NCBI GenBank assembly: GCA_036872755.1
Contig: JAVHNS010000003.1
Span: 3,286,001 to 3,350,000 of the forward strand
Origin: Orbilia blumenaviensis
Lineage: Eukaryota; Ascomycota; Orbiliomycetes; Orbiliales; Orbiliaceae
Length of the DNA: 64,000 nucleotides
Direction: 5' to 3'
Below, piece by piece: positions 7,052-64,000 of this stretch. How positions within the stretch are numbered: the stretch's first letter is position 1; each line of letters opens with the position of its first letter. Both the position numbers and the translations under genes were made by a program. The notes under the pieces were generated by a model, which worked only from the letters and a program-made list of their open reading frames with translations, was not told where the DNA came from and searched no databases.

Positions 7052-8365
7052 CTAAGTGCCTACCCCAAGTGGCAGCAGCACGTTCTGTGCTTTGTTTTCC
7101 TGGTAGTAGTCATAAACAACCGAGTACTCCGGAAGCTGCTCGCCTTTCTTTGGTCGCTTGTCTCTAGCCCAGACCCTCCATGGCGTTTTCCGAGGAATGA
7201 ATGGCTTATTCCAAGACCTTGGCTCTAGATGCGACGAATACCGAGCTATCGATCTGAACTTCACAGAGCTCGTGCTCTCAGCCATTTTTCTTGTCTCAAT
7301 GCTCAGTATATCGTACGGTTCGTATAGAGCTAGTGTGATCTCGACTTCTGTGTCCTGCATGCCGCCATAAGCGTTGGAGCCCTCTTTGCCTTCGGCGCCG
7401 TTCTTCGGGGCTATGGAACTCTTATCTTCCTTCCCCTCAATTTGCATGATGACACTGTAATGATCTGGAAAATAAGAATCGTTGTGGTCAGCGACCTCCC
7501 TCCTCTTCCTAACTTCATTGAGATCCACATCACCAAATAATGACCGATGCATGACATTGTAGACTAAATCTTTAACCGAAAGCATTCTACGCCGGCTCGT
7601 CCTAGAGCTCTGACAAAACGGTATCGTTGTAGTTCCGTTATCGTAGAGCTTTGTCTCGATTAAGCTTTCGAATTCAATTCCACAGTACAGCGTTACCACG
7701 GCTGACAGGTTCTCGGGCCGAATGAGTCTATTAGACGTATTCAACCGGATCCCAGACGGCGGTTCAACAAGTACGGCGGTTTCGAACTCCTTAAGCTTCG
7801 GTTTGATAAGTGCTACAAGCTCGTCCATCAACGCATCACGGGAGTCGACCCCAGTAATTTCCTGCGCCTTGGAAAACGGCAACCTCATGAACCGTCTCCA
7901 GAAGAGCTGTAAGAAATGGATCGCAACGGGGTGGACTTCGAAAAGATCGGTATACGTGTGCACGGTGCACATCGGTGAAGAAGAGCTACGGCATTTGCAC
8001 GCTGCGTTTGTGTATTCCGATCGAATGCTTGGCGGCGGTAACGAGATCCCATCCAAAGCCTTTAGTCTCTTCGGTGTTGGAAGCTGTAATTGATCCGGAC
8101 TATTATTTTCTGGCTTTTCGGGTGTAGGAGTGCTCGGAACGTTCTTAGGACGGCTGGGGACCCAGCATCTCCAGCGAAGGATAGGATCGGTTTCGATTTC
8201 GTCTTTCCACGTTTTACAGACCAAACGTGCGCCAGTGATGAGCTGTACCGGCGGGACGTGAGAGAGAATATGTGTAAGGATTTCGGGTATTCGGAAGATG
8301 TCACTAGAGGGAGGCAAACAAGTCTGAAACTCGGGTTCGGATACAGCCTCCTTAGGCTCTGCCAT
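7052..8365 (-). CDS. F-box protein
   Basis: An intronless frame of 437 residues starting at a true ATG. Residues about 25-65 form an F-box: IPEILTHILSHVPP followed by an LVCKTWKDEI helix ending in W-rich residues, the usual SKP1-binding fold of SCF ubiquitin ligases. The rest has no kelch, WD40 or LRR pattern that I recognise. A patch at about 110-130 is Cys-rich (CKCRSSSSPMC). The C-terminal third contains aromatic and basic clusters. It shares overall layout with the F-box protein at 23089 (F-box, then a region starting about 70 residues later with hydrophobic beta-like stretches), but I cannot prove homology by eye. The substrate is unknown. Confidence 0.8.
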   Translation of the reverse strand: MAEPKEAVSEPEFQTCLPPSSDIFRIPEILTHILSHVPPVQLITGARLVCKTWKDEIETDPILRWRCWVPSRPKNVPSTPTPEKPENNSPDQLQLPTPKRLKALDGISLPPPSIRSEYTNAACKCRSSSSPMCTVHTYTDLFEVHPVAIHFLQLFWRRFMRLPFSKAQEITGVDSRDALMDELVALIKPKLKEFETAVLVEPPSGIRLNTSNRLIRPENLSAVVTLYCGIEFESLIETKLYDNGTTTIPFCQSSRTSRRRMLSVKDLVYNVMHRSLFGDVDLNEVRKRREVADHNDSYFPDHYSVIMQIEGKEDKSSIAPKNGAEGKEGSNAYGGMQDTEVEITLALYEPYDILSIETRKMAESTSSVKFRSIARYSSHLEPRSWNKPFIPRKTPWRVWARDKRPKKGEQLPEYSVVYDYYQENKAQNVLLPLGVGT

Positions 8366-43542: not shown

Positions 43543-46500
43543 CTAGCGTCGATAGCTCTGAGTTAGTCTTGAAGCTGGCACGCGGGGTTTAGAGAGGATA
43601 CCAACCTCAAGCCCTTTCCCATCCACCCATTCCACAATCCCCGGAAGCCCAGTGGCACATGCAACAGAAATTAACATCGGCATTTCCATTGCGGGTACCT
43701 TGACATAGTACAGTCCCGGAATCCCGACCTCCATAACCATCTTCTCAACATCTTCTGTGTTGGTTTCTGCAAAGGTATGGTCGGTGTTGAATCCATACGG
43801 GATAATCTGTTCAACGGTGATGTATGCTTTCCGTGATACCACATATCTGCATGACTTGTCAAATCCAATCTTTACCTTTGGGATAATCGGTACTCTTTTT
43901 ATTGCCTGGTCCGCAATTGGAACTGCCCCGTTCGGCTCAACTCTACCCCCTAACTCGTCGCTTTTCTGGGCTGTTGGGTGTTCTTTGTTTGCTGCATCGT
44001 CGGTATCGGGGCTGGCGGCCTTTTTTTTATTACCAATGTACCACGACTCATCATCCTCCTCCTCAAAATCCACAGGCTTTACAGGGGCCTTCTTCCTTCC
44101 TCTTTTCTTCTTTTTCTTCCTGGAGTTGCCCGATTTCCCTTTCTTCGAGGCGGCCTGCTGCGGAGTACGCGGTTGTGAACGCTTGGTTGCCGCATCTTCA
44201 GAATCGTCCGAGTCACTCATCTCGACGTCTCCATCATTTGAGGCGGCATCATTAGCAGATAGTTTATTTGGCGTTGTATCTAGTGGGTTTATTTCATCAG
44301 CTAAAGGATCATCAGGTTGCGTCGCCCCATTCATCGGAATGGGCACTGTGGCTTGCTCGGGATCAGGCTCAGGTATCTTAAGGGGTGCTTCGGTGGGAGT
44401 TTCTGGTGGAGCTTCTGCTTTCATGGCGTCCTCAGAAGCTTCGACCGGGGGACCTGTAGTAGTTTCTGCCTGAGCATCGCTAGTAGTTTCTACAGGGGCA
44501 TCACTGGCAGCCTCTGGAGGAGCATTAGCGGCAGTCTCTGGAGGAGCGTTAACGGTAGTCTCTGGAGGAGCATCAGTAGCAGTTTCTACAGGTGCATCAG
44601 TAGTAGGCTCAACAGGAGGCTCAGCTGTTGTGGTCGCTGGTATGGGAATATCACTAGGATCCCTCGGGGGACTATTTATCGGAGTCCCGGTAGGGTGATA
44701 ACTAGGCGCTTCTGAAGGGTTCTTTGATGGTTCATCCGTACCAACCTCTATTTGAGTTTCCGCAGGGATGTCTGTAGCAGGCTCTGGGTCCGTTGGGACG
44801 CCTGTGGGGTTATCTGCCAAGTCTTCCGTCGTTACCGCCACAGGAATCTCGACGGGAACCTCTGCAGGAGATTTTGGAGGCCCTCTTATCGGAAAATCCA
44901 CAGCACGCTGCGGTACTGGGAACCTGACAATGATCTCCATTGGTGTATCCTCCTGTGGCTGCTGGGGAATACTCTCTGCGAAGTCTTGGGGGGTATCCAC
45001 AGGAATTCTCTCGGATTTGTACGGCAGCAAGATCCGAACATGAGACAAGTACGACGGCAGGTCCTCCATTAAATCTTCAAAGGAGTCTACAAAGCCGTGA
45101 GGCATTGTCTGCGCAAAGTCTTCGGGCGTTCTGGGTGGGGAGGGCATTGTAGTCGCTTCTGGCTCCGGATCGTTAACTGACTGCTCTTGGTGGTCGCTGT
45201 TACTTGGTAATTCGTCTTGTGGCGTCTGAATCTCTATTGGTTGAACATGATCTCGCGATGTGTCTTCCTCCGATTTTTTGTCTTTTGGCTGCGTGTTGAT
45301 ATCCTCTCCCTTTGGCGTAAGGTCTTCCGAAGGTCCGACCTTAGGACCATCCTCTTTCGATGTTATCTCTTCCGAGGTCTTATTTTCTTCCTTCGCCTCA
45401 TCGGGGTCCACATTTTGCGGGGCGTTTATATTTGGCGTATCACCCGCAGATCCCGCAGACATTGATGCTGTCGGTGTTGCAGCACCAGAAAATGGACTCT
45501 TTGAACGAGTTGCTGGCGGCTCACTGGGACGTCTAGCTGGCATATGTAGACCCCCCCGCAATACAGATCGCCGGAATCTAGAAGGCCTCCGAAACGGTGT
45601 TCTGGGAAACTCGCCAAGGGCCCACTTGTTCGTCCAGGTCAAGTCATAATCTGGCTCTTCGCCTCGCGCCTTCATTTCTTGGTCAATATCATATTGGTCG
45701 GCCCAACTTACCCCCGTCTCTGAGACTCTGGATTGCCACACGTAGAAGTCGGTCTTTTTTTCGTCTGTAGGGTCACACTCCCCTCCAGGGCCAGATTCCT
45801 CCTCAGAACTAGGTTGCTTTTCAAGAGCAGGCTTAAGCTTCTGCACGAGAGTAGGCTTCTTCGTGACAGGAGGAATGTCATCTTCAGTCTTTGGCGGGCT
45901 CGGCACCCTCGGAGCCGGAGGCGGGGTTTTCTTGGCCTTTAGTCGAGACTGTAGCGGTACACACCAAGCACCTAGCCCAGGCTTCGGAGTGTTTCCAGTG
46001 CTCGATCCTTCGGCCTCGTCTGAATCATCCGCCCCATCTAGACCCATCCGTGGACGCACATTCACCTTGGGATGGTGTTTCCCGACAGAATGCTCACTTG
46101 ACAGAGTGCAAGAGCTATCAGAATCTTCTGTCGTCGTTGGTTTCTTGTATGTTTCGTAAATATCTAGCCCGAAACCCTGCTTTGTTCGTAAGAAAATCGA
46201 ATCTTCATCCAGACAACCCCCAAGGAGAACCGGTTTTTTGACGTTATCAGGTTCTCCTTCGGCAACATCCTCCATATTTGAGTCCTCCGGTTGCACCGTA
46301 TCGGTGTCATCAGGAGTATCTTTAGTGTCGGCATCCGGGTTCAACTTGGTTTCGGGGTTCAACTTCTTTCTTTTCCTGCGCTTCTGTTTACTTATCTTCG
46401 CAGTCCTATCCTCGATTAATATCGGGAAGTTCCTCGAGAAGCATACAATATCTTTGTCAAAGTCATCGTACAAAATCCCTTCTTGGACAGTAATCGCCTT

Positions 46501-48936
46501 ATCGCTGTGGGCTCGATACCCGTTCGTCAAAGTAATTTTGTAAGAGACTGCCTTCAACCCGTTTTCTTGCATCCCCAACCCGGTTAAAAAAGACAATGCC
46601 GTCCATCCTTTCTGACCCAGAGCCCACCCGTTTTTCAGGCACTTCAACGTCGGCGCCCCAGTATATATATGAAGCCGATTCTCAGCCCGAGGTTGTCCTT
46701 TCCAACCATGAATATCTGTAACTATTCCATGCGCCAGTTTCAGATTTCTGTAAAAGTGACCTCCGCAGCCTTGGCTCTTCCAAGGATGGTACAGGATAAC
46801 CTCAAAAATGGGGTCAGACCTAAACCCAGCCTTTTGATCCGCCAGCTCCCGTATCCGCGAGGACATATTGTGGAATCGAGAATTGGGGACAAACAAAGTG
46901 ATGCAGACGAGACGACGTTCGAGAGCGATCTCTTCTTGTTGGCCTTGACAGTTGGATATAGTCTTTGGCGTTATCCCGTGCAGATGCTGATGAATCCAGA
47001 ATTCGTCGCTTCGGCTGATCTCGCCCCCCAACGACCGGCGAACATCACGCTCTATTCTAACCCAGTCCAAACTACTATCAGCTGTGGAGTGGCTTTTGAG
47101 TGTTTGTATCAAAAGTGCAAAAGTGGCAGCGGTGTGTCTCCAATGATATGTGTGCATCTCTTCAAACATCGCATACCCTATGTTCGAAAGAACGCCCACA
47201 ATCTCATCATGATTGAAATCGAGCTTGGCAAACAGAACTCTCATGTCAATGTCAACGTTTGAAAGTTTGAAACCATATCGCCCGCATTGGAAAATTTCGA
47301 GACTGGACGCACCAAGCCCATTCAGGAGTCGTTTGTTGCGTTCATCATTTTCAGGAACAGGACGTAGACCAAATAGTGTCCAAACAGTGTCAAGAGCGAC
47401 GCCGACTAAACGGGACATGGGGAAATATCTGCCTCCGTCCCTGCGAATAGTTCTGTCGGTGATAACAATTCCTCCAGGGCTTTCAAGAATAAGACCTGCT
47501 CCAAGGAAAAGATTCCACAGCCCGGTAGACCTAACCCCAACCCTCGCATCTACGACGTGGAACGTTAGATTTGATGGGTAAGTTGGCTCAGAGTCATCGC
47601 CTTTCTGGCCGTAAACTTCTTGCATGAGAGGTGGAGTAGCAGCTGCAGAATTTGGAGGCCGGAGCAGGCGGATTTCGTGCAGATACTCCATTGGGCCTGA
47701 TAGTATAAACGTAATTTGTGCTATCCGGTGCTCAAACGCAGTACGTAGTGAGAAAGCCCAATCTGCAAACTCATCCATGCACCCGGTCTTTAATCTTTGT
47801 AGTAGCTTTTGGTGATACCTCGGATCGTAGTTATCTCCGAGAACTGGTCCACCTGCCTTGCTAGAGTATTCATCATGTATTTCATGGAATTTCCTAAAGC
47901 CATTCAGTGGCTCAAGCACTAGATCAAGATGCGGATTAGCTGGTGAGAATACTGACTGTTGTTTCTGCACCTGGAACCTACCAAAGTCCCAACCTTTCCC
48001 TTCCCCGATATGTGAGAGCGCGAAAAGTAAATTCATCACAACGGGCACGGTGTCCTTTTCAAGCGAAGTCTTTCCCGTATTCCAATACTCTTCATGGATT
48101 TGATGGACTGCCCGGTTTAACTTTTCTTGTACGTTGTTTTTACACCATGTTGAGTCTTTAAAAATATCAACTCCCTTTTTCCCCACCACGGGTTTAGTTT
48201 TGAGATGATCTGACAACGAATCCTTTAGTTTCTGATTGTAACCCTCATCCGCGATCAACCCTTCATATCGGGTATAAATGCGGTTGAGCTCTTTACGAGT
48301 TGCCGCAGAGCCTATGTGAACGAGCTTGGAGAGATCATATGCTTCCCATTCTTTGAGGCTGGATGTCGCTTTCGAGAGGACGTTTAGATGGAACATCAGA
48401 TACTTTGCAGTGGGTCCGGGTATCAGGGAGTTAAAATAAATCTCCCAACAAGTGTACTTTGACAGTTCTTTGACGTCTTGTTGTAGACGCATTACATTAA
48501 TTATGACGATATTTCGGGCTAGAGTACCGACGACATTATATTAATATACAGAAGAGGACAGGCAGGATGCGGGGCATGGAAACTACTCACCAAGTATATA
48601 TGGGTCATTGGCGCATATTGTAAAATGAAGAGTTCGGCGATGCTCTGGCTTCGATAATTCTATATTGCTCTCGATGTCCTACAACTTAGTCATTGATGGG
48701 CCTCGAGACGCTCAATGCGTTGGATCGTATAAGTATCTGATCTGAATCAAGTACTTACTCTCCTGAAGCTCGACTACCGTTGAATGAATCGTATGCAAGA
48801 CATCCTGGACACCTCCATGTAGTACCAGGGCGTTGAGGTATCGCTCAGGGCGAATGGGCTCGTAAAGATTTAGGGGAAACATGCTGTAATATGGTTTCCA
48901 GGCATTTGCCGCTTCGAAACAGGCTGGGGCAGCCAT
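43543..48936 (-). CDS. DUF4470-domain protein with long disordered region
   Basis: Three exons, 48759-48936, 48591-48659 and 43543-48518, with introns of 99 and 72 nt (donors GTAAGT and GTGAGT), encode 1740 residues. Splicing rebuilds an N-terminal DUF4470 (PF14737) at about residues 15-110: a short GG-x-x-DVLHTI segment, then LHFTICANDPYILARNIVI, the family's ...D-x-x-x-LARN-x signature. A large folded region follows to about 740. Residues about 840-1520 are low-complexity and probably disordered, with an acidic/Lys-rich start and a Pro/Thr/Glu/Ala-rich array of degenerate TDAPVETT-like units. Next come a Lys-rich stretch near 1550 (KKKKKRGRKK, a possible nuclear signal) and a conserved-looking C-terminal ~110 residues. 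DUF4470 often heads MYND-finger proteins, but I see no MYND finger. Role unknown. The uninterrupted 4.9-kb last exon rules out decay. Confidence 0.8.
44400..44760 (-). repeat. coding array of degenerate Pro/Thr/Glu units
   Basis: Within the DUF4470 gene, successive roughly 30-36 nt units encode variations of APPETxxD/N and APVETxxD. The nucleotide pattern on the + strand repeats GGAGCATCA/GTAGTTTCT-like blocks. Such arrays readily gain or lose units. Confidence 0.65.
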
Positions 48937-51720
48937 TTTTTAGGATCATGGAATTCTGCAATCGGGTTTGCATGGATTGCCCGCAACTGTATCTGGCGGC
49001 GTTAAGGAGGAGAAATATCTACAGCAGAAAACGAGCCAGATAAAATGTTGTACTCCTTTCAGTTTGTCTAGACTATCGGCGCTATTCGTACTTGGTATCC
49101 AGAACACAGATACCTACAGCTATTTCAATGTAACCAGTCTCACGAAGGGAGTTGTGGCTGTAATAATGGTGAAATAATTGACTGGAGACACAGCTACGAC
49201 CGAAAGCCCCCTAAGTCTCTACAATTTTCAAAATATTTAGTTCACCATAAACAGCAAGTTAAACGTAGGTAACTCCGCCGGAGATGTTTCAGGGATTAAA
49301 TCAATAGTATAGCTGAGGTCAGCATTAAACTAGTGTTTTCTTATCTCCGACATAAATATCCCTCACAATCTGCCTATATGTTGGGTTTTGTCATCAAGAT
49401 ACGATATTACACTAGATCTTCACCAAAATAATTCTAGCTTAGGTTTAGTCCAATTAGGCCAACGTTCAGATAGCCTATTGCCTTGAAACACTAAGTATTA
49501 GGCCAGAAACTCGGTGAGGCGTTAGTTGGCGTTGCGAGGCATTGCGTATTGCATTGGGATTGGGATGACGCTATCATCAAAAACATCTTACCTAGCAGTC
49601 CAGATGGATTACCTAGGTAGTCGATACTAACTTCAGCGCCAAAATTTCGCCTGCTAACGTTTTCAACCGCGCTGCGAGACTCCCTAGCAACCTGAGATGC
49701 CTGAATTGGTTATGGGGCAAGGCTTAATTGCCCTGCTAGTTGCTTGCCCAAATTAGTACCCAAATTGATAACTACCCGTCACTACCCCAGCTGAACGCCC
49801 AACTCTGACCTGTAAACCGCCCAATATTGCCGTACCAACCAGCATACTCGCCTACTTACCCGTCTACCTGCCTATTAATATTATCATACTCATCACGAAA
49901 AACGAGTTGTGTCATCCTGGGCGTCCAACAGCGGGATGTTCAGGGTGTTTTTGGAACATTCTACGCTATCGGGACGATAGTTCGTTGTTTGGACGGCCGG
50001 GATGATACGGTATGCGATTTTTTGGGCTAATTCAAAAAAGCGGGATTTTAATTTATATTAAAATGAATTATTGTCAAAATTGATGGGGTCAAGTAAAGTG
50101 TCCCGTTGCTACAGTATGTGGTGAGGAGCAACACCTTTGTCAGTAAGTGTGGGATAGAGTTATTGACGACAAGAGAAGAATAAGTAGTATGAGGAGGAGG
50201 CCAAATGGGGATGATTACGACTTATGATATGGAGTCAAAAGGGCAAAATGATCTCAAAAGAAAGAGAGAGGAGAGGAGAGGGAGAGGAGAGAAGAAGAAG
50301 GAAGATAAGGAGGAAGTGCAGGAAGTGCATTCGTACCTGAGTCATCCGTCTCTGCATGACGGATGCCCGGCTTTATTGAATATGTCAGACAGCAAACTTC
50401 ATTCATTTTTCAGTTCCCTCTCTTTCCCCCCCTTGTTTTTGACAATATACGCGATTCAACGAGACGGTATCCAAAGATACCCGAAGATACGCAACAAAGC
50501 TACTTGTTTTCTTTCGTACAAACCAGAGCGACTGCCAGCATCACGAAGTTTCTAAGTAGCAAATATCACCAAGGTATACTTACAAAATGGCGATATTTAT
50601 GAGACTGTGTAATAAGTTGCTAGTATTTCTCAGAAAGATAAGAACTAGCGATCAAATTCGTCGAGGCGATGATCGAGGAGGACCAACAACGAATCGAAAT
50701 CCTTCACAAAGCTCCGGCAACAACCAAAACAACGACGTCTCATAGGATTTAGATACACTTGAGCGTGCTGAATTTTTTGCACATCGACGGCAGACTTGTT
50801 ATCAAGCTAGATAACCCAATCTGTTAGTTAAACGCTGTGAGCTATATAAAATCCACATACTTTGGCTATGCTGGCTGTAAGAAAGGGTATTCTTGAGCTC
50901 TTATACCAAATTCTGGAACCTAATTCTTGGAGATGTTATTACAGAGGGCGGTCTGAGGTGTAGAGCAACTCAAACGACAGTTACGGAGCACGAGTACCGG
51001 TGAAAGATGTGGCAGCCTTCACCCAACTATACGGAGTTTTGCAGACCTTTCAATCACTTCCCATGGATATGAATCAACCGCACAGTTTCCAGTAATATCT
51101 ATATCAACCATATCTGTCTAACAAAAGACTCGCATGAAGTGGCGTATCGACTCTAAACTACTTAGTTGGTGATTCGTGTGGAGAAGATTTCCACGAATGA
51201 TGTGGCCAAAGCGGAACAGACTAGGTTTATCTACATCCGGAGACTAGTAATGGGGCATCTGGTTCCGGCCGCTGGGCAGCATCAAAATTTATTATAGCAA
51301 AGTGAGCCTGCATACAAGAGTGCCGCGCTTTTCATCAAATTCAAAGCCTTTAACAATCAGCCATCAAACTATTGGCCTCATTAACAACGATCGATAGCGT
51401 TGCCCAGGCCCAGTATCAGAAACGTGTATACCGGGGTCACCCAGAATCACAGATCCCTTTACGAAATCCGAAAAATGGGAGGCAATGTAATCCCATCGCG
51501 CACGGTGTGAGCGCAGACACCGGCTTTGCTTAGCGCTGCCGGTCGAAGGCTGCATAACTTTGGTCAGTTCATCTACACAACCTTAACGCCATAAAAAACA
51601 TCATCAACATAATCAAAAGCCCATTAATCAATTTCTTTCTGAGTTCCTTCAGTTCCAGCCTGTTAATCTCTCTTTTCATATCTAACATAACATCCACAAC
51701 TTTTATCAGCCAACCAATAA
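48937..51720. other. 2.8-kb gene-free flank of the AT-rich block
   Basis: No supported gene. It holds a polypurine tract (50256-50316). From about 51590 the composition shifts gradually: C is kept while G becomes rare, ending in the AT-rich block. The frame at 51364-51555 (-) has no recognisable domain. Confidence 0.55.
50256..50316 (+). repeat. GA-rich polypurine tract
   Basis: About 60 nt of almost only A and G (AGAGAGGAG and GAAGAAG-like units). The surrounding frame is low-complexity and not credible as a protein gene. Confidence 0.8.
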
Positions 51721-53178
51721 ATATTAAAAAAACAATATATTTTATAATAAATTTTTATATATTTTTTTTTTTCTAATCTTAATTTCAAATAAATTATATA
51801 TAATTTAAATTTTAGATATTTATTATTTTCAAAATTTTTTTAATTTTTTATATATAATTTATTATTATCATTAAAATTTTTAAATTATATGTGTTTACTA
51901 CTATTATTATAATTTTCAAATTATATATATTAATAATAGTTAATTTTATAAAATTTATAAAATAATTAACAAAATATAATCTAATACACATTAAAAAATA
52001 TTTAATAATAAAAAAAATAATATTCTATTTTAATTTAATATTAATATTATTTTTTATAAATATAAAACATTATTATTATTATTATAATTAAATTTTAATA
52101 TTATTATTTTTATAAATTTTTAATTTTTTTATTTTTAAAATTAAATTTTTTTATTTTTAATTTTTTTTATTTTATTTTCCTTTAAACTTAAATAAAAAAA
52201 ATTGTAAATAATTTAATTTTTATAAATTTTATTATTATTTTATATATTTGAATTTTTTTAATATTATTATTAATATTAAATAAAAATTAATTTTATTAAA
52301 ATTGTTTAATATGTTTTAAAAAAAATTTATTTTAATATTGAAATTTAAATTAAATAAAACTATATTGGATATTTAAATTAATTTTTTTTGTATAACAAAA
52401 GTTATATTTTTATTATAATTAAATATAAATTTAATTATTTTAAAAAAAAAGGTAGTTTTATTGGATAACTTATAATTATAAAAATTATAAATTATTAATT
52501 TAAAAAATAATATAATTAAATTAATTTTAAATTTAAATTTATTTATTAAAAAAATTTTATTAATTATTTTAAATTTTATTATTATTTATAAAGATAAAGG
52601 ATTTATATTCCAAAATAATTTTTCCTTAATTTAATTAAATTAATTAAATATTTTAAAAAAATCAAAAATTATTAAATTTTTATATAATTAAATTAAATTA
52701 TTTTTAAAATTTTTATTTATTTAATTTATTTTATTTATTTTATATAAAATAAAAAATAAAATATTTAAAAAATTTATAAAAAAATATAATTAAAATAATT
52801 TTTTTTTAATAAATTAATATTCAAAATTTAAATTATTTATTAAAAAAATATTCTTAAAAAAGTTTTATTATAATATAAATTTTAATAAATATTAATTATT
52901 AAATTTTTTAATATTTTTTAATAAAAAAAATTATAATTAAATAAAATTAAATAAAATTATTTTATTAATATTATTTTTATTTAAAAAATATTTTATTAAA
53001 AAATTATTAAAATTAAATAATTTTTTTAATTTTAATATTAATATTATTTATTTTTTTTTTAAAAAGAGATTTAATTTTTAAAAATATAATAATTTAAATT
53101 TAAATAATATAAATTTAATTAAAATTAATTTATTTAAAAATTTAAATATTTTTAATTTGGGGTTATAGGTAGGTGATA

Positions 53179-53270
53179 AGAATAATAAAAAAAAAGAAAA
53201 AAATGAGAATAATAAAAAAAAAAAGAAAATAAGAATAATAAAAAAAAAAAAAAAGATAAAAATAATAATA
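53179..53270 (+). repeat. tandem repeat inside the AT block, three ~27-bp units
   Basis: Three units start AGAATAATA and continue as A-runs broken by a single G. They stand out because G occurs only at fixed unit positions. Confidence 0.65.
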
Positions 53271-56200
53271 AAATTGTTAATAAAAAATTTTTCTTAACAA
53301 AAGTTTTAATTTTAAAAAATAAAAATAACTTTAAATTAATGGTTATATATTTTTTTAATATAAAAAAAAAATTTTAAAATATTTTTTTATTAATTAAAAA
53401 TATTTAAAAAATTATAAATATTAATTTTAAAATTATTTATTATATTTATAAAATAATTAATATAATTTAAGATATTATTAATAAATATAAAAAAAAAATT
53501 ATTAAATTTTAAAATTAAAATAATATATTAAATATATTTTGTTTATATTTATTTATTAATTATTTTTTTTAAATTAAAATTTATAATTAAAAAAAAAAAA
53601 ATTTATTAAATTTAAAATAAAATATTTTTAATTTTTTTAAAATAATTAATTTTTTTATATTATATTAAATTTAGAAAATTAAAATTATTTAATAAAATTT
53701 AATTTATTATTTAATTATTTAATTTAAATTAAATATAAAAAAAATAAAAATAATAGATAAGTTTAAAAATTTTATAAAAAATAAAAAATTTATAATTAAT
53801 ATAAAATTAAATTTTTTTTTTAAATAAATTAATTTTTAAAAAAAATTTTTAAAATTAAAAAATAAATTTTATATATTAAATGATTTTATTTAAATTAAAA
53901 ATTATAATTTAATATTATATAATATAAATAAAAAATTTATTTAAATTTTAAAATATAAAAAAATTTTATTTATTAAATTTTTTTTAATGTTTTAAAATCA
54001 ATTTCAATATTTTTTATTATAAAAAATAAAAATTAATAATTTTCAAAAATTATTATCTAATAAAAAAATAAATTATCTAAAAATATTAATTTAAATTTAA
54101 CAATTAAATTAAATAAAAAAATTTTAAAAAAAATAAAATTAAAAGAAATTATTAATATTATATTTAAAAAAAATAAAAAAATTAAAAAAATATTAAAATT
54201 ATAAAAATTTATAAATAAAAATTTTAATAAAAATTTTAAAAAAAAAAAATTTTAATTTTAAAAATATTATAAAAAAATTTAGTATTATAAATAAAATTAA
54301 AAAAAATAAAATTTAAAATTAATTATTAATTTTATATATTAATATTTTTATATTAAATATAAATATATTTTAATTAATTAAAAATATAATTTTAAAATTT
54401 AAAAATATTTTTAATTAATAAAATTTAATTATAATTATTAATTTTTATATTATATTTAAAAAATTATTTTTTATTTTTATTAAAAAATTTTATTTAATTT
54501 ATTTATTAAAATTAAATTAAAATATTTATTAATTATTTTTTTTTAATTAAATTTACTTTTTTATTTTTTATTTTTTATAATTTTTTTCTAATAATTATTT
54601 TATTTTTTTTAAATAATATATTTTGTAAAAAAATATTATTATATATTAAAAATTTAATTTATTGTTTATTAAGATTTTTTATTTTATAATATAATAATAA
54701 TATTTATTATAATTAAATATGGGTTATAATAAAAAAAATAATTTTATATTTTTTATATTTTTTTTTAAAAAATAGTAAAATTTTATATTAATTTAATTAT
54801 AATTTTTTTTTTTTAATATTTTAAAAAAAAATTATAAAATTTTTGATAAAAAGTTTTAATATTTTTTTTAATAAAGATTTTAATTTATATTTTAAATATT
54901 TATTACTTAATTTATTAAGAAAATTTTTATATAAAATAATAAATTCTTTAATATTAGATTTTATTTAATTTTTAACAAATTATAATTTTGTTTTATATAT
55001 AAATATTACAGATAAATTAATTTTATATATTTAATTATAAAAAAGTTATATTAATATAATAAATTATTATTTTAATATTTTTAATTTTAAAGTTTTATTT
55101 TATATAATTTTTGATTTTATTGTTGGAATAGATTATATATTTATTTATTTTTATATATAAGTTTTAAATATTTAATATATTAAAAATGATATTAATATTA
55201 AAAAAAATAAAAAAAATAAATTTTATAAAAATATATTTTTTTTATTTTTATTTAATATTTTTAATAATATAAATAGTAATTTGTTTAAAATTTTAAAAAA
55301 AATTAAATAAAATAAAATTAATAAATTATTTTTATATAAATATAAAAATAATAATTTTATTTTAAAATTTATAATAAAAATAAAAAATATTAAAAATAAA
55401 AAATTTTTTTAATATAATTTATTAAAAAAAATAAAATATCAACATTTATTAAATAAAATTATATTTTTTAAAAAAAAAAAACAAAAAATAATTTATAAAA
55501 TTAATAAAAAGATTATTTTTTTTAGTTTATTTAAAATATTTTAAAAATATTTTAAATTAATTTCTAAAAATAAAACAATTTTAGCAAAATTTAAAAATAT
55601 TTTAAAAAAAATATTATATAATATTTTATAAATTTATTAAATAAACTTATTAAAACTAAACAAAATATTAAAAAAATATAAATTAAAAAAAAAATTTATT
55701 TTTTAAATTTAAAAAAATAAGAAAGATGGAATATTTTTTTTATTTTAAAAAAATTAAAATTAATATTTTTAAAAATAAAAAATTTAATAAAAATAAAAAA
55801 TAAAATTATAAAATTTTAAATTTTTAAATTAATTTTTAAAAAAATTTTAATATTATTTAATAATATTTTAATATTAAATAAAATATTAAATATGTGGATA
55901 AGGGTTATTTTAATTTTATTTTTAAAATTAAATAAATTTAATTTAAAATAATTAAAAGATTTAAAAAAAATAATATTATAATTTATTTTAAAAAAATTAT
56001 TTTTAATTTTATTATTTAATTATATTTTATTTTAAATAAAAATCTTTTTATTAATTATTTAATTAAACTTTTAATTTTTATTTAAAATAATTAAAAATTT
56101 ATTTATTATAAAAATATTAATAAAAAAATATAAAATAATTAAAAAAATTTTATTTATAATATTAATAAATTTATAAAAAATTTTTAATAATATTAATAAA

Positions 56201-56700
56201 AATATTCTTTAAAAAAAGTTAAAAAAATTAAAAATTAAAACTTAAATATTAAAAATTTTAAAATAATTATATTATAACACAACAATTACAATCAAAATTT
56301 AAAATATATTTTCTAATTTTATTAATATTTCATCTAATATTATTTAAAAAAAAATTTTTTTTATTATTATTATTTATTATATATATTTATAATATGATAA
56401 TTAAAGATATAAATAATCCTAAATTTTTTAAAAATTTTTTTTTTTAATTAGTATTAGTAAATAATATTATTATATTTTTAATTATAAAAAATGGAATTAT
56501 ATATAAATTAAAAAATATAATACTCCAAATTATTAAATTATATTTAAAAATTAATTTTAATAAAATATATATTATTTTTTTAGGAGATATTTTGAGAATA
56601 AATAATTTTTTAATTATAATTAATATAAATATTTTTATTGTTTTTAAATTTTTAATTAAATATATTAAATTTATTTTATTAAATAAGAATTGGGATTTAA

Positions 56701-56935
56701 ATATTTATGCCCGACTGCATTTATGCAGGAGGGTTAAAGTTGAACCAGCGCGAGGGCGCGATCCTACCCAGATCCGCAAAAAAATGTGTTGTTTTTGGCC
56801 GACAGAGAAAAAAATTTTTAATTTTTGCCATACAAATTTGTATGGGATTTTGCAAATCTTAGCGGTCTTGGCACTAATTTTCAAGTCTTGGCTAAGAAAT
56901 TTTAAAAATCACCCCTGACAAAAGTCTTCACCATT
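56701..56935. mobile_element. GC-containing island, possible mobile-element fragment
   Basis: An abrupt return to ordinary base composition inside the AT block. It contains a perfect 18-bp palindrome at 56828-56845 (centre AAATTT), inverted copies of TCTTAGC/GCTAAGA, and CCCGACTGCA near 56709. The reverse complement TGCAGTCGGG recurs at about 57319-57330 in the next island, so the two islands may be the ends of one inverted-repeat element (about 56.70-57.36 kb). No coding potential. Confidence 0.5.
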
Positions 56936-57083
56936 TTTGTATTTTTGAATCTATAACTCTAATACTTTAATATAATCTTCTTTAACCCTTTATCTAACTT
57001 CCTATAAGCAAATAGGTCTTTAGTTACTATTTTTATATTTTTTTTATTTTTTTAAATTAAGTCATTTTTAGCGAAATCAGGTT

Positions 57084-57276
57084 ATGTGATAATTTTTGAT
57101 GTTAAAACTATTTTTTATTTAATTTTTATTTGATTTTATTTAAATTTAATTTAATTTTTACATGCAAAATGGTTATGTGACACATAGAAAATAATATCAC
57201 AAAACTTTTAAATTTAAATTAAATTAAATTAAATAAAAAATTAAAAAAAATATTTTAACATCAAAAATTATCACAT
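57084..57276. repeat. long inverted repeat, MITE-like hairpin
   Basis: The arms 57084-57107 and 57253-57276 are exact 24-nt reverse complements (arm starts ATGTGATAATTTTTGATG). Similarity continues inwards for about 40 more nt. A further GTTATGTGACACAT motif lies between them. Such a hairpin is typical of a small non-autonomous element. Confidence 0.7.
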
Positions 57277-57974
57277 GACACATACAAAAATTATATATTA
57301 TTCATTTAAAATCAAAATGCTGCAGTCGGGTTTGAGTGCTGCGCAGCAGCCTCCTAGTTTAAATTTTAAAATAGTTTTTATTAAAAAAATTATCTTTATA
57401 TTATATATATTAAAAAAATATATTTTTTTATTTTTAATTAAAATATTTTTAAATATATATTTTATATTAATAAATTATTATTTTTTTTTTATAACTAAAA
57501 TCTTTTTTAATTATAATAATATAAAAAAAAAAAAAAAATAAATATAATATAATTTAATTTTATTTAAAAAATTTTTAAAATTTAAATATCTTTTATTATT
57601 TTAATTATAAAAATAAAAATTAATTAATTAAAAATTTTATAAAAAATATTAATATTAATTATAAAATTTTTTTTTTACTTTACTAAAATTTTGAATATAA
57701 AATTTATAAAAGTTATTTTTATAAATTTAATAAAATTAACTTTTTTATATAAAAAAAAATAAGTATTTAAATTTTAAAAAAAAATTATAAAATTAAATAA
57801 ATTTTTAAACTTTAAAAATAATAAAGTAGAATTTTTACCTATTTTAATAAATAAAATTTTAAAAAAATAATTATTAAAAAATATTAATAAAAATATTAAT
57901 TAAATATTTAAATTAAAATATTTACCAAAATATTTTAAATATAATTTTTAATTACATCAGCAAAAAAAAGTGTT

Positions 57975-58012
57975 GGCTTCCCAGGCTTCTGAAGCCAATA
58001 AGCCGGGAAGCC
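57975..58012. repeat. nested short hairpin at AT-block subdomain border
   Basis: Outer arms GGCTTCCC (57975-57982) and GGGAAGCC (58005-58012) enclose inner arms GGCTTC/GAAGCC (57984-57996). It is a 50-nt GC-rich island separating the most AT-poor-in-GC part (before) from the slightly less extreme part (after). Confidence 0.7.
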
Positions 58013-60147
58013 TCTTAACTTAGAATATTACTTAGAAATCAAAATTTTCATTTGCTTCTTAGAAGTTATAAGATGATTATTGTTTATTAAACAACATTTT
58101 TTAAATTTTCGCAAACATCAGAAAGCTTAAGTTATTTTAGTTGTTATATAAATATTAAAATTTAAAACATCAACAAAATTTATGTTTTTAAAAATTTAAT
58201 ACAAAACAATTTTTTTTACAATAATTTATAAATAATTACCATTAATAATTAAATATAACATAAATAAATTTGTTTTTACAATTTAAAATTATTATTATTA
58301 TTACTATTAATATAATTCTAATATAAATACATTTCACAATAAATAAAAATAAAACAATGGTTATTTATTAAATATTAATAAAAAAATTATTAAAATTTAT
58401 TTTTTTTTCCATTGTTAATAATATCAAATCCAAATTTTAAACTCCCCTTTTTAACCAAGTTATTTTTTCTAAAATAACCTATATTAAACACTAAATAACT
58501 TACAAAATTCTTTCTTATATAAATTAATAAGCTTATAAAAGTTTAAAATATTTTTCATAAATTACTAATATTTATTAGTTTACAGAATATGTTAATTATA
58601 AGATAATAAACATTATATTTTTGTTAGTTATTATCACTGCAGTTATATTTGTATTCTGAATCCTAATTTTTTATTATTTTAATATAATAAATATTATTAT
58701 TATAATCTAAACTATCAATTTTATATTTATTATATTTATTAATTTTAAATTAAAAATTCTTTGATTTATGAAAATTTTCTAATATTATTTGATTAATATT
58801 GTAAAAATAATAGAATATATAAATAATATATTTATACTTTATTATTATCAATTACTAGATATTTTCCATTTAAAACTATAAAAAAATAAATTTATCTTTA
58901 TTGTAAGATCTTTATAAATAAAATATCAATTTTTAATTAATAAATTTTGTATCCAAATTTTACAATATTCAATAATATTTTTCAAACAATAAATATTTTT
59001 TATAATTTTTTTAATAATATTAATAAAATAACTTTAATTAAAATTAAATAATTTTATAAAATATTTTATATATTAATAATTTAATTATTTATTAAAATTT
59101 ATTAAAAAACTTTAAATATATTTTTAAATATTTTTATTAAAAAAAAATAATATATTTTAAAACCACCAAAAAAAATATTAATTTTAACATCTTTCATAAA
59201 TACTAATTTTATTTAAAAAAAAATATAATTTTTTATAAATATATTAAAAAGTTTTAGTATTATTATTATAATATATTATCTTTTTATTATCTACTAAATA
59301 TATTCTTAATATATTGTTAGTTAATTCTATTATTATGTATATCATTAAAAAAAATATTTTTAAATTTTTAGATTTTTGGCGTATTATAAGATATAATATT
59401 ATCAATCTTCAATTATTATCCATTACTTTAAATTAACAAGTAATTATAAAAATTATTAAATATTTTTAATTAGATACACAACATCTAATAATAGACAATA
59501 TTATAATTATAAATAATATTTTAATTGTAGATTTATTATTATTTTTTATTGTTTCCTTTGGGATAGAGGTTGTTATAATAAATGATTTAATTGGATTTGT
59601 TTATATATTAGATAGTGGTAATTTGTTAAAATCCACTGAAAAGATATTATAAAATTGTAGTAAAATAGATTTTAAACCTAAATTCATTTTTTTATATATT
59701 TATTTATTTAATTTTATAAAAATATTAGTAGATTGTATAACAAACAATAAAAAATCAATAAAAAATAGTATTGGTAAAAAAATTATAAAATAATTAATTT
59801 CTTCAACTAATTCTCCTATTTTTTTTGTTAAATTTAATATTTCATAATTTAATTTTATAAATAAATTTTCTAATATTATTATATTAAGTAATATGAAATT
59901 TAATGAATTATTATTATTTACTATCACTTTTTGTGATAATATATTTACAATAAAATTTAATAAACTATTATTATTTATTATTATTTTTTATAATAATATA
60001 ACTAAAATTTTTACATCTTATTAGTTATTAATATATTTATAATATAAATGTTATTAGATGATAAGGATTTTATTATAGATGGAAGGAGTTTCTTTGTTTG
60101 TATTATTATTTTTTTTGTTACTTTATTTTTTGTATTCACAATAGTGG

Positions 60148-60180
60148 ATTTAATAAATTTAATAAATTTAATAAATTTCT
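60148..60180 (+). repeat. short AT tandem repeat
   Basis: About three copies of a 10-nt TTTAATAAAT-type unit. Confidence 0.6.
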
Positions 60181-60254
60181 TTACTTTGGTTATGATGATG
60201 ATAATAAAAATATATTAAATAAACAACATTTATTAGTGAATAATATAAATTAAT

Positions 60255-60300
60255 AAAAAAAAAAAAAAAAAAAAAAAAAATAAAAAAAAAAAAAGGGGGG
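60255..60300 (+). repeat. poly(A) run ending in G6
   Basis: A run of 26 A, one T and 13 A, followed directly by six G. It could be a retroelement tail junction, a replication-slippage tract, or an assembly artefact. Confidence 0.7.
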
Positions 60301-63300
60301 AAATCATTTTAAGATATAAATCTTAAAAAAGAAATAAAACTACACTTTAATATTTTGAATTTATTTCAACCAAAATAAGATTGGATAATAAACAATCAAT
60401 AACTATCATTTATTATAATCCACAATCTCATCATAAATAATATTATAAATCTTCAAATTTATATAACTATTAATTTAAAAATTTATTGATATAAAATCTG
60501 AAATTAATTACACTATGTAAATAATATTAATAATTAAAATAACTTTATAATAATTATAATTTAACAATTAATAAACAACCAATACCAAACCATAAATATT
60601 ATATATTTAACCATTATAATTAATTTAAAATTCCATAATTATTATAATTTTGAATGTTTTTGTTATATAAAGATTTTAAATCTTTAATAACAATTTGATA
60701 AAAAATGGCCAATATTTTTGAAAAACTTTATATATTTTTTTTTTATTATAAAAAACAAAGTTTTGATGAGGCAGATTCTCTTTTTAAAAAAAAGAATTAA
60801 TTGAATATATTAAATATTTAATATTTGTTAAAAAATTATTAAAATCTAGAACCTTAATTTTTAACTAATTATATAATTAATAATTTAAAAATTAAAATTT
60901 TTTATATACAGTTTTTGAAAATAATAATTATCATTCAACATCCAATATAAGATTTTAAAATATTGTTTAATATTATTAATCACATATATATTTAAATATC
61001 AATCAACTAAAATAAAAAAAAAAATAAATATCAAAAATTTTTTAAATGGATTATTTATTATCTCCAATAATAAATCAAAAACCTCTAAAAACATAACACT
61101 CAACATCTAATAAGATTTTTTAAATAACATCCAAATTAATAATTAAAAAATTTAAAAATTACTTATTTAATTTAATATTTTAAATATTAATTTATCGATT
61201 TTTTTTCCAAAATAAAAACAGTTAAATTTTATTATCTTCAACATCAAAATTTAAATTTTTAATATCATTATTTAAATTTTCAACTTCAAATTCCAAACTT
61301 TAATCATCATCTACAATCTACCCCTCACCATCCAATAAAATATCCTCCATTTCATTTATAATTACTTATAAAAATAATAATTGAATTAAGATTTTATAAA
61401 TACTAAAAACAAATTTATATAAAAAGTTTAAAAAAACTTTCAATAAATGTTAAATATTTGAAATAGATTATTAAATAATTATTAAAAAATTAAGATTTTG
61501 TAACCAAAAAAACATTTTTTTTTAATATGTAATAAAAATTTAAAAATAAAAATTTATTTAATTAGAAACTTTATATTTTTTTTTTATTTAATATTGATAT
61601 ATTAATTCTGAAACATCCATTAATTAATTTATTAACATTTTTTATAAATATATAAAATTTTTGTAATAACTTGATTAATATATTTTGACTATATTAAAAA
61701 AATTAAATTAATTTAATCTTTTATTAAATTAAGTGTTAATTTTTGTATATTTATAAATAATGTAATTGTGAATAAATATTTTTGAATTATAGTTATAAAT
61801 ATATAATTAATGCTCAATATTCTTCAGTTTTTTTTTATATTTTTTTTTTAATTTTTTTTTTAATTTGGAATTATAATAAGTGTAAAATATATTATTGTAT
61901 AAATAAAATTGTTTTTAAAAGTATTTAAAATATTTTATTATTATTTTAATATGGTTATGATATTACATAAATAAATAAAATTTAAAGTAATTTTGAATAT
62001 ATTGGAAAAAATTATTAAATATCAGACACTAATTGGTTATTAGATATTGGAAAATAATTATAAACATATATAAAAGAATTTACCCAACCATTTTTAATTT
62101 TTTTCTTTGTTATTACATAATTTAATTAAAGGGTTTTTGAAATCCAAGGAAATTAAAATACAGTAAGAATTTGATTTAGATTTTATTAAATTTGTTAATA
62201 CATTTATAAATTTTCATAAATATTATTGATTATATTAAAATATTTTTGAAAATTCCAAAATAAATCCCATACAATAAATCAAACTTAGGTATTTATAATA
62301 ATTAAACAAAGAGTAGTTAACAAAAAACTATATTCATACTACAAAAATATTGTATATTTATTTTGTTAATGTATTTTTTTTTATCTATTTTATTAATTAT
62401 AACTCAAAATTTGTTTTTAATGTTTTCATATTGCTTATAATCGTGTTTGGAATTTTGAAAATTGTATATCCCCAGACTCTAAATGTTTATTTCACAGATT
62501 AGATAAGAATTTGTTTTAATATTAAACAATTTAACATATTCCATATAATCTACAATTTAATTAATTAATTTAAAATAATAATTTTATATTTTTTTATTTC
62601 CAAAAGAAAATTTAAAAACACATTCTAAAGAATTTTAAATATTATTTAACAAACACTAAAAATTATTTAATAACTTCAAGAATTTAAAAATAAAATTTTA
62701 AATAACTTAACTAATTAATAATTTTTAATTTTTAAATAAAAAAATTTTTTTAAAAAAAATCAATAATAACACAAGAAGAATTTATAAATAATACAACAAC
62801 CATAAATAAATAATTAATAACAAATTAACAATAATTATATATATTAATTAAATTTTTTTATTTTTAAAAAAATTTATTAAATATATAATATCAAATATAA
62901 AAATATATAAAACAAATATTATATTAATTAAAAAAATTTTTTATTAAATAATTAACAATAAATTATAAATATATTTATAATATATTTAACTTATATATTT
63001 TATTATCAATTTCCTGATTTAATTTCATTATATATACATTTATTTTTATTATTATATTTTTTATAAAATATAATTATTAAATGCTTAATATATATTAATT
63101 AATAAAAAAGATAATGAATATAATTAATTAAATTTTTTTAAAGATATGGAATTATTAGTAATTTAGAAATTTTAAAATTGTAAATAGATTTTTAGAAATT
63201 TAATTATAAATTATTGTTTATAATATCTAATAATTTCTAAAAAATATAATCTAACAAAAAAAAACTAATATTAGATATTAAAAAGTTATTATTAAAATAT

Positions 63301-64000
63301 TTATTAATTTTAGATTTTATAAATTTATTTTAAATAAACCAACTTACTAGATTATATTTTTATTTATTTTTAAATAAATAATAAAATATATTAAAAAGAT
63401 TTGCATATATAAAATCATTTTACAATAAATATTCAACATCTATATAATATTTTTATTTAATAAATTTTTTAATTAATATATTAAATTCCTAAATATTTAT
63501 TAATATTTCATAATCTTCATTAAATATTAATTAACAATTAATATTATTACCAAATTATATTTACTCATTAATATATTTTTTTACCATATATCAATTATAA
63601 AATTTTTTATAATTATATTTATTTCCATACAAAAAACATTAGAAAATTTTAATAAATATTTAATATCCCATAACCATCCAATAAATTTTGACTACTTATT
63701 AAAACTATAAAAATAATATTAACAATATAAAATTATTTTTACAAATAATAAAAAATTAATATATTACTATAATAACCATATTTATTTTCTACTAATAATA
63801 AATCTAAATCAATCATAATATTTTAATATAAAAATTTTTTTTAATAAAACACATAAAGTAATTTTAATAAAATACATAAAGTAAAGTAAATTAAAATTAA
63901 AAAAAAAAAAAATAATATATATACAAAAATTCTATTAATTAGTAATTTACTTAAAACATACCATCACCATCCAATAATAATTTTTAATAAATATAAAAAA

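What the first reader, a model, noticed from the sequence alone, without database searches (positions are those of the whole stretch)
51721..64000. 12-kb block with G+C far below usual RIP-altered DNA
Visible lines carry only a few G or C in 60 bases, with a sharp border against ordinary genic DNA. RIP in well-studied fungi usually leaves more GC than this, so either mutation ran nearly to exhaustion, or this is a special domain (centromere, subtelomere), or it is a foreign/misassembled piece. The extreme composition makes it the most unusual structure in the window.
Basis: partly seen in the sequence, partly recalled or inferred. Interest (0 to 1): 0.75.

Follow-up and report, generated by a model that had tools for sequence, protein, structure and literature searches.

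The report
Gene-region copy stripped of G+C
A stretch of a fungal chromosome that is almost pure A and T turns out to be a copied piece of another chromosome in which about nine in ten G:C pairs were turned into A:T, with no other base change in the part compared, and which transposons later invaded.

Summary
In detail: window 51,726-56,685 is 1.7-4.8% G+C, the rest of the block about 12%. The island continues past the window to C3:3,363,495.

The ~3% part is best explained as a duplicate of a C6 segment (about C6:650,313-656,489) mutated almost only by C>T on both strands. In the one 251-bp piece of C6 I could read (41.8% GC), all 92 differences are C>T or G>A, purine/pyrimidine identity is 251/251, and 92 of 105 G:C pairs are gone. 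That piece hits the genome only once.

The copy abuts 49-72-bp pieces of C2, C7 and C6 that stayed unmutated. A MITE-like element, a ~12% GC element and an intact chromodomain Gypsy element lie inside it. Low-GC relics of that Gypsy family lost 1,912 of 2,115 C's in every context, yet ten near-identical Gypsy copies are unmutated.

Best reading: repeat-induced point mutation (RIP) run to exhaustion, with weak context preference, and no RIP since the Gypsy burst. Centromere, subtelomere and foreign origin are unsupported; reads were not available.

The parts
51390..51449 (-). Templated fragment 1: copy of a piece of C2 (about C2:2,267,399-2,267,458), 60 bp, unmutated
   Evidence: 60/60 identical to L003 1507-1566 on the minus strand; 97% over 66 bp in the genome search
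51450..51521 (-). Templated fragment 2: copy of C7:1,104,775-1,104,845, unmutated
   Evidence: 71 matches and one 1-base indel over 72 columns against L002, minus strand; directly abuts fragment 1
51518..51566 (+). Templated fragment 3: copy of C6:1,348,987-1,349,035, unmutated; shares CACC with fragment 2
   Evidence: 49/49 identical to L004
51577..51725 (+). Left edge of the C6 duplicate (C6:650,313-650,461), partly mutated: G almost gone, C kept
   Evidence: 81% identity to C6; 40 C and 8 G. 51,567-51,576 is unassigned
51726..56685 (+). Exhausted core of the C6 duplicate (about C6:650,462-655,395), 1.7-4.8% GC per ~1 kb
   Evidence: C6:650,313-651,047 = window 51,577-52,311, equal lengths, 71%; C6:651,060-651,310 = 52,324-52,574, purine/pyrimidine identity 251/251; colinear matches at 54,195-55,461 and 56,077-56,682, offset 598,711 in both, individually no stronger than composition matches; composition
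56686..57370 (+). MITE-like short element inserted at the end of this stretch of core; many copies elsewhere
   Evidence: C9:35,531-36,197 copy at 90%; 65 transitions and 0 transversions over 661 columns, purine/pyrimidine identity 99.7%. Ends are approximate
57371..57955 (+). Further ~3% GC core, probably C6 from about 655.4 to 656.0 kb
   Evidence: Composition; position between aligned C6 anchors. No C6 match to this stretch was among those listed, so the origin is inferred
57956..64000 (.). Mutated transposable element of ~12% GC with G+C-rich ends (GCTTCCCAG motif), continuing outside the window to about C3:3,363,000
   Evidence: Seven other places cover at least 5,600 of 5,991 bases of 58,010-64,000 at 78-86% identity; ends read

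Best explanation
A break on C3 was repaired by copying in short pieces of C2, C7 and C6 followed by a ~6.2-kb segment of C6 (inferred from the abutting pieces). The 6.2-kb piece made a duplicate long enough to be recognised by RIP; the 49-72-bp pieces did not. Cytosines on both strands of the duplicate were then turned into thymine until about nine in ten were gone, with weak context preference and less at both ends (shown for the sampled part and the ends). The intact C6 locus was probably retained by segregation from an unmutated partner nucleus (inferred). I think RID-started RIP followed by DIM-2/heterochromatin-directed mutation carried the process past the point where the copies are still alike (inferred from Neurospora work). 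Inside it lie a MITE-like element, a ~12% GC element that was itself mutated, and a chromodomain Gypsy element that is unmutated (shown); that they inserted later follows from the nesting. Ten near-identical Gypsy copies show that RIP has not acted since that burst (shown), through loss of sex or of RIP (inferred).
For: C6:651,060-651,310 against window 52,324-52,574: 50 C>T, 42 G>A, 0 reverse transitions, 0 transversions, 0 gaps, 13 of 105 G/C kept; score 251 against 46-49 for reversed, reverse-complemented and complemented controls. By context: CpA 36/37, CpC 21/25, CpG 12/16, CpT 23/27 lost. The 251-bp piece finds only itself in the genome at E<=10. Both ends of the C6 segment match the two ends of the island, 81% and 80%. 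The gypsy family gives an independent case: 13 relic alignments under 8% GC, 1,912 of 2,115 C's read T (CpA .919, CpC .902, CpG .935, CpT .871); in the printed rows 30 reverse-type transitions and 137 transversions. MITE copy pair: 65 transitions, 0 transversions. Eight pairs of relics under 8% GC: 454 transitions, 86 transversions; only 29 of 514 residual G/C sites shared. A RID/Masc1-like gene with PCQ and EQT triads lies at C10:1,392,978-1,393,922 (triads as described in PMC6709928, passages).
Against: Only 251 bp of the C6 donor were read (4% of the segment); the rest rests on colinear search matches of 66-81%, of which the 66-67% ones are no stronger than composition matches. No C6 match to 57,371-57,955 was listed. 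Canonical RIP indices are not raised and the context preference is much weaker than usual. The donor is intact although RIP normally mutates both copies. 25-bp net length difference between donor and copy between the anchors. All 32 strict pairs together include 447 transversions beside 1,534 transitions, so not every difference among these elements is RIP-like. Sexual-cycle dependence, RID function and chromatin were not testable.
Confidence: 0.86

Rival explanations
1. The core is an ordinary AT-rich or satellite-like sequence that drifted to low GC, with no recent GC-rich ancestor.
For: Many other AT blocks align to it at 65-68% in both orientations; numerous short A/T tandem-like runs.
Against: Those alignments equal the reversed-sequence control (up to 830 bits). 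The C6 donor match has 251/251 purine/pyrimidine identity. Period-3 signal in the purine/pyrimidine pattern (mean 3.32 against 1.03; 0 of 300 shuffles as high), although one of the four high windows overlaps a tandem repeat.
Confidence: 0.03
2. The island is a centromere or another dedicated chromatin domain.
For: Long ORF-free AT-rich DNA with a chromodomain retrotransposon inside; in Trichoderma the longest AT-rich block of each chromosome is the putative centromere (PMC8672877, PMC5496416, passages).
Against: At ~26 kb including ~9.2 kb of intact Gypsy it is not the widest AT-rich zone of C3: matches cluster over about C3:2,521,192-2,670,164. Similar low-GC blocks recur at several places per contig. 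Its core is a copied arm segment.
Confidence: 0.04
3. The C>T process was not RIP in the strict sense but a different cytosine-targeting process, such as heterochromatin-directed (DIM-2-like) mutation in vegetative growth or a deaminase, acting on this duplicate and on transposon relics.
For: Weak context preference, intact donor, and conversion far beyond the similarity limits usually quoted for RIP (recalled). Neurospora RID and DIM-2 have separable roles, RID for new repeats and both for older ones (PMC11969663, abstract start and passages). Three DNA-methylase loci exist.
Against: The altered stretch coincides with the duplicated segment, short pieces beside it are untouched, and the ends are less mutated, as for a repeat-length-dependent process. 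A RID-like gene is present.
Confidence: 0.12
4. Assembly artefact: unlinked AT-rich DNA was joined here.
For: No reads could be mapped; AT-rich DNA is assembly-prone.
Against: C3 is one 3.69-Mb contig without N in the 264 kb examined; the Gypsy has 5-bp flanks ATAAT on both sides within the AT-rich element; two ends of one donor segment bracket the island.
Confidence: 0.03

Closest known systems
Repeat-induced point mutation (RIP) of Neurospora, Zymoseptoria and Paecilomyces
   Same: C>T on both strands, over the extent of a duplication, transposon relics made AT-rich, RID-like gene present.
   Different: About 88-90% of all C's converted and ~3% GC left, against about 20% GC in AT-rich regions of P. 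variotii and 141 and 156 of 780 bases changed in one cross, CpA-biased (PMC6300479, passages), and 20.8-22.8% average in large RIP regions of three assemblies (PMC7882544, one passage). Context is weak here; in Z. tritici 240 of 242 new mutations were CpA (PMC10294615, passages).
RIP-hidden duplicated genes found by deRIP (PMC3017866, abstract start and passages)
   Same: A duplicated region made unrecognisable to BLAST by RIP; short repeats (<1 kb there) not affected.
   Different: Here the unmutated donor is still in the genome and gives a base-by-base comparison; conversion is near complete.
RIP-derived AT-rich blocks of Trichoderma (PMC5496416, PMC8672877, passages)
   Same: Interspersed AT-rich blocks in chromosome arms beside a larger AT-rich zone.
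   Different: Layered island with a traced donor and much lower GC than the criterion used there.
Templated insertions at repaired breaks (polymerase-theta type; search listing only)
   Same: Chain of short copies of distant loci, directly abutting, one with shared CACC.
   Different: Here chained to a several-kb segment that then became a RIP target; the enzyme was not tested.

Membership tests
RIP | Differences are C>T / G>A only | tested here: met
   92 of 92 in the C6 donor sample; 65 of 65 in the MITE pair; 1,912 C>T-type against 30 reverse transitions and 137 transversions in 13 Gypsy relic alignments
RIP | Restricted to duplicated sequence | tested here: met
   Alteration starts at 51,577 where the C6 match starts and GC recovers by C3:3,363,495 where it ends; 49-72-bp pieces beside it unmutated. 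The middle was sampled only at 251 bp
RIP | CpA preference and raised TpA/ApT index | tested here: not met
   Gypsy relics under 8% GC: CpA .919, CpC .902, CpG .935, CpT .871; window sample CpA 36/37 against 56/68 for the others, so a mild preference at most; TpA/ApT about 1.0. Near-exhaustion hides preference, so this weighs little
RIP | RID/Masc1-type gene | tested here: met
   PF00145 match with PCQ and EQT triads at C10 (PMC6709928 passages). Only part of the gene was read
RIP | Acts in the sexual cycle | not testable with these tools
   No crosses or population data
RIP | Both copies of a duplicate are mutated | tested here: not met
   C6 sample is 41.8% GC with an open reading frame of 83 codons in one frame (sequence, read by eye). 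Segregation could explain it
Centromere | CENP-A occupancy; one per chromosome | not testable with these tools
   No ChIP. Several low-GC blocks per contig speak against this one

The most novel reading that the evidence does not exclude
This fungus has a RIP-type process that is nearly context-free and does not stop when the copies cease to resemble each other: it takes a newly copied single-copy locus from ~42% to ~3% GC before ordinary substitutions accumulate. A homology-triggered start would be followed by mutation of what is by then single-copy heterochromatin, leaving the original locus intact. Much of the ultra-AT DNA of such genomes would then be readable as purine/pyrimidine copies of known loci.
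Probability: 0.4. Interest if true: 0.75.

Novelty: new variant of a known kind. Interest (0 to 1): 0.6.

Why it matters
It shows how far C>T mutation of duplicates can go and gives a way to trace 'featureless' AT DNA back to its source: after exhaustion A stands for purine and T for pyrimidine, so the ancestor is found at 96-100% identity where ordinary alignment gives 50-63%. It puts a RIP target, its intact source, an apparent length threshold and a later RIP-free transposon burst in one locus, which makes the questions of what stops RIP and whether RID and DIM-2 act in sequence directly testable.

Tried and rejected
BLAST-level relatedness of AT blocks: rejected, since matches of 65-70% over kilobases also appear against reversed sequence. 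Canonical RIP indices: uninformative. Purine/pyrimidine search of the core against everything in hand before the C6 lead: no match above the reversed control (89.7 against 87.7 bits). Organism identification: an uninformative solved-structure search and a protein search that returned only the query itself; the species stays unknown. Capture-recapture of ancestral GC from pairs of relics gives 14-50% over eight pairs, pairs not independent; a first value of 47% from one pair in my notes becomes 37.6% with the corrected estimator. The MITE-like element and the ~12% element were not classified. Papers: searches listed no title that I recognised as describing ~3% GC nuclear DNA in fungi; that is a statement about those listings only.
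Full report
What was found. The window is G000:C3:3,286,001-3,350,000 of a 42.46-Mb, 23-contig genome. GC drops at 51.7 kb from genic values to 2.5-3.6% per kb until 56 kb and then to 9.7-13.8%. The change points are 51,715 and 56,686. Reading on, the island goes on past the window end, is split by a 44.2% GC LTR element (about C3:3,351,420-3,360,609 by the ends seen; 9,182 bp of it used in the computations), and resumes to about C3:3,363,430.

Layers. (a) Core of 1.7-4.8% GC, 51,726-56,685, and of about 3% at 57,371-57,955 and just right of C3:3,363,000. (b) A MITE-like element at about 56,686-57,370; the search scored 40 of 239 candidates and listed 140 matches on many contigs. (c) A ~12% GC element from about 57,955 to about C3:3,363,000; apart from itself, seven places cover at least 5,600 of the 5,991 bases searched at 78-86% identity (40 of 722 candidates scored). 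Its G+C-rich ends are little altered. (d) The LTR element: Ty3/Gypsy with reverse transcriptase, RNase H, integrase zinc-binding and chromodomain matches and a gag ORF, LTRs identical over 550 aligned bases, flanked by ATAAT on both sides.

Why simple alignment fails. The core aligns to many AT blocks at 65-68% over kilobases on both strands. The same is seen against reversed, non-complemented sequence, with up to 830 bits. Such matches are composition only.

The source of the core. A search with 51,560-52,760 gave one exceptional match: C6:650,313-651,047 against window 51,577-52,311, 735 bases on both sides, 71% (40 of 685 candidates scored). I read C6:651,060-651,310. It has 41.8% GC. Against window 52,324-52,574 it shows 77 A-A, 69 T-T, 50 C>T, 42 G>A, 10 G-G and 3 C-C: no transversion, no reverse transition, no gap. 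In purine/pyrimidine letters the identity is 251/251; three scrambled controls score 46-49 against 251. The piece has no other match in the genome at E<=10. Further matches lie on the same diagonal: C6:652,906-654,171 with 54,195-55,461 and C6:654,788-655,392 with 56,077-56,682, both at offset 598,711 against 598,736 for the first part, a net 25 bases that may be one unit of the ~27-bp tandem array at 53,176-53,273 (inference). C6:656,170-656,489 matches C3:3,363,176-3,363,495, 320 bases on both sides, 80%. So the segment runs from C6:650,313 to 656,489 and its two ends bracket the island. The 66-67% matches carry weight only through colinearity. No C6 match was listed for 57,371-57,955; its membership is inferred from spacing (585 plus about 175 bases against 777 on C6).

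Extent and context of the change. In the sample 92 of 105 G:C pairs changed: CpA 36/37, CpT 23/27, CpC 21/25, CpG 12/16; C 50/53, G 42/52. At the left end, 51,577-51,725, 40 C but only 8 G remain, as if one strand alone had been hit; from 51,727 on both are nearly gone. At the right end GC recovers over about 100 bp.

The Gypsy family as an independent case. Reduced to purine/pyrimidine letters, the intact Gypsy matches AT-rich relics beside MITE copies on other contigs (real scores up to 1,154 bits, reversed control 73.8). One search kept 19 alignments of at least 150 bits. Thirteen relics under 8% GC have 92.9-98.4% purine/pyrimidine identity but 46.5-61.2% ordinary identity, and 1,912 of 2,115 C's (both strands; small overlaps not removed) read T: CpA .919, CpC .902, CpG .935, CpT .871. 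Summing the printed rows, there are 30 reverse-type transitions and 137 transversions. Six alignments at 8-15% GC (two are one LTR counted twice) give .72-.81. The selection by purine/pyrimidine similarity favours relics with few transversions, and the intact copy is not their direct ancestor.

Pairs of relics. Among 32 strict pairs there are 1,534 transitions and 447 transversions in all; in the eight pairs with both members under 8% GC, 454 and 86, and only 29 of 514 residual G/C sites are shared. That fits independent near-complete loss from a GC-richer ancestor; the capture-recapture estimates of that ancestor spread from 14% to 50%. The window's MITE and its C9 relative differ by 65 transitions and no transversion.

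Coding memory. The purine/pyrimidine pattern of 51,721-56,685 has a period-3 signal (mean 3.32 against 1.03 in 300 order-3 shuffles, none as high; 4 of 15 windows high, one touching the tandem array), as expected if coding DNA lies underneath.

How it got there. Just outside the duplicate lie 60 bases identical to a C2 locus, then 71 of 72 columns identical to a C7 locus, then 49 identical to another C6 locus, each directly abutting, the last two sharing CACC, followed by 10 unassigned bases and the 6.2-kb segment. The searches of the flank found no further copy of these pieces; a 59-base 83% match of 51,619-51,677 to C8 stays unexplained. Such chains are typical of templated repair of breaks (established knowledge). 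That the chain and the segment arrived in one event is inference. The short pieces are intact; only the long one is mutated, as a length-dependent process would do.

Mechanism. RIP-type C>T mutation is the best-supported step. The genome has three DNA-methylase loci; one has the PCQ and EQT triads of RID/Masc1 (PMC6709928 passages). The order RID first, then DIM-2 in established heterochromatin, is taken from Neurospora (PMC11969663, abstract start and passages) and would explain both the conversion beyond recognisable similarity and the intact donor; it was not tested here.

RIP is not acting now. Ten full-length Gypsy copies, the island's included, match at 100% over 8,574 bp, nine with the self score and one 8 bits lower (16 of 202 candidates scored). 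A fungus with working RIP and frequent sex should have mutated these. More diverged copies (63-77%) exist on C9, C12 and C23.

Comparison. Published AT-rich RIP regions seen in passages have about 20% GC, and RIP there is CpA-biased. Duplicates hidden by RIP are known (deRIP, PMC3017866). The present case differs in degree, in context and in having the donor still in the genome. I therefore call it a new variant of a known kind.

Limits.

Noticed in passing
C3:3,351,420-3,360,609 and nine other places: Chromodomain Ty3/Gypsy element with ten essentially identical full-length copies, unmutated, in a genome whose older relics of the family are almost stripped of G+C.
   Followed up: partly
window 51,390-51,566: Chain of three 49-72-bp copies of C2, C7 and C6 loci at the edge of the island.
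   Followed up: yes
C3:about 2,521,192-2,670,164: Wide cluster of AT-rich matches: candidate centromere of C3.
   Followed up: no
C10:1,392,978-1,393,922 (L049): RID/Masc1-like methylase exon with SCPCQ and SEQT; the residue before PCQ is C, where I recall P in relatives.
   Followed up: partly
window 50,047-50,101: About 35-60 bases in the genic flank with 82-94% matches inside AT-rich stretches of C3 and C2 (L005-L008).
   Followed up: no
window 51,619-51,677: 59-base, 83% match to C8:1,060,067-1,060,125 at the left edge of the duplicate.
   Followed up: no
window 57,955-58,010 and L010:2,940-3,000: Ends of the ~12% GC element keep normal G+C and carry GCTTCCCAG repeats; the element type was not identified.
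   Followed up: no
L035:3,160-3,647: Tandem array with a 54-bp shift at 98.9% identity beside a C5 MITE copy.
   Followed up: no
window 7,052-8,365; L011, L013, L018: F-box and NACHT/NPHP3-type genes in the arm around the island.
   Followed up: no
window 43,543-48,492: 1,649-aa open frame with no Pfam match.
   Followed up: no
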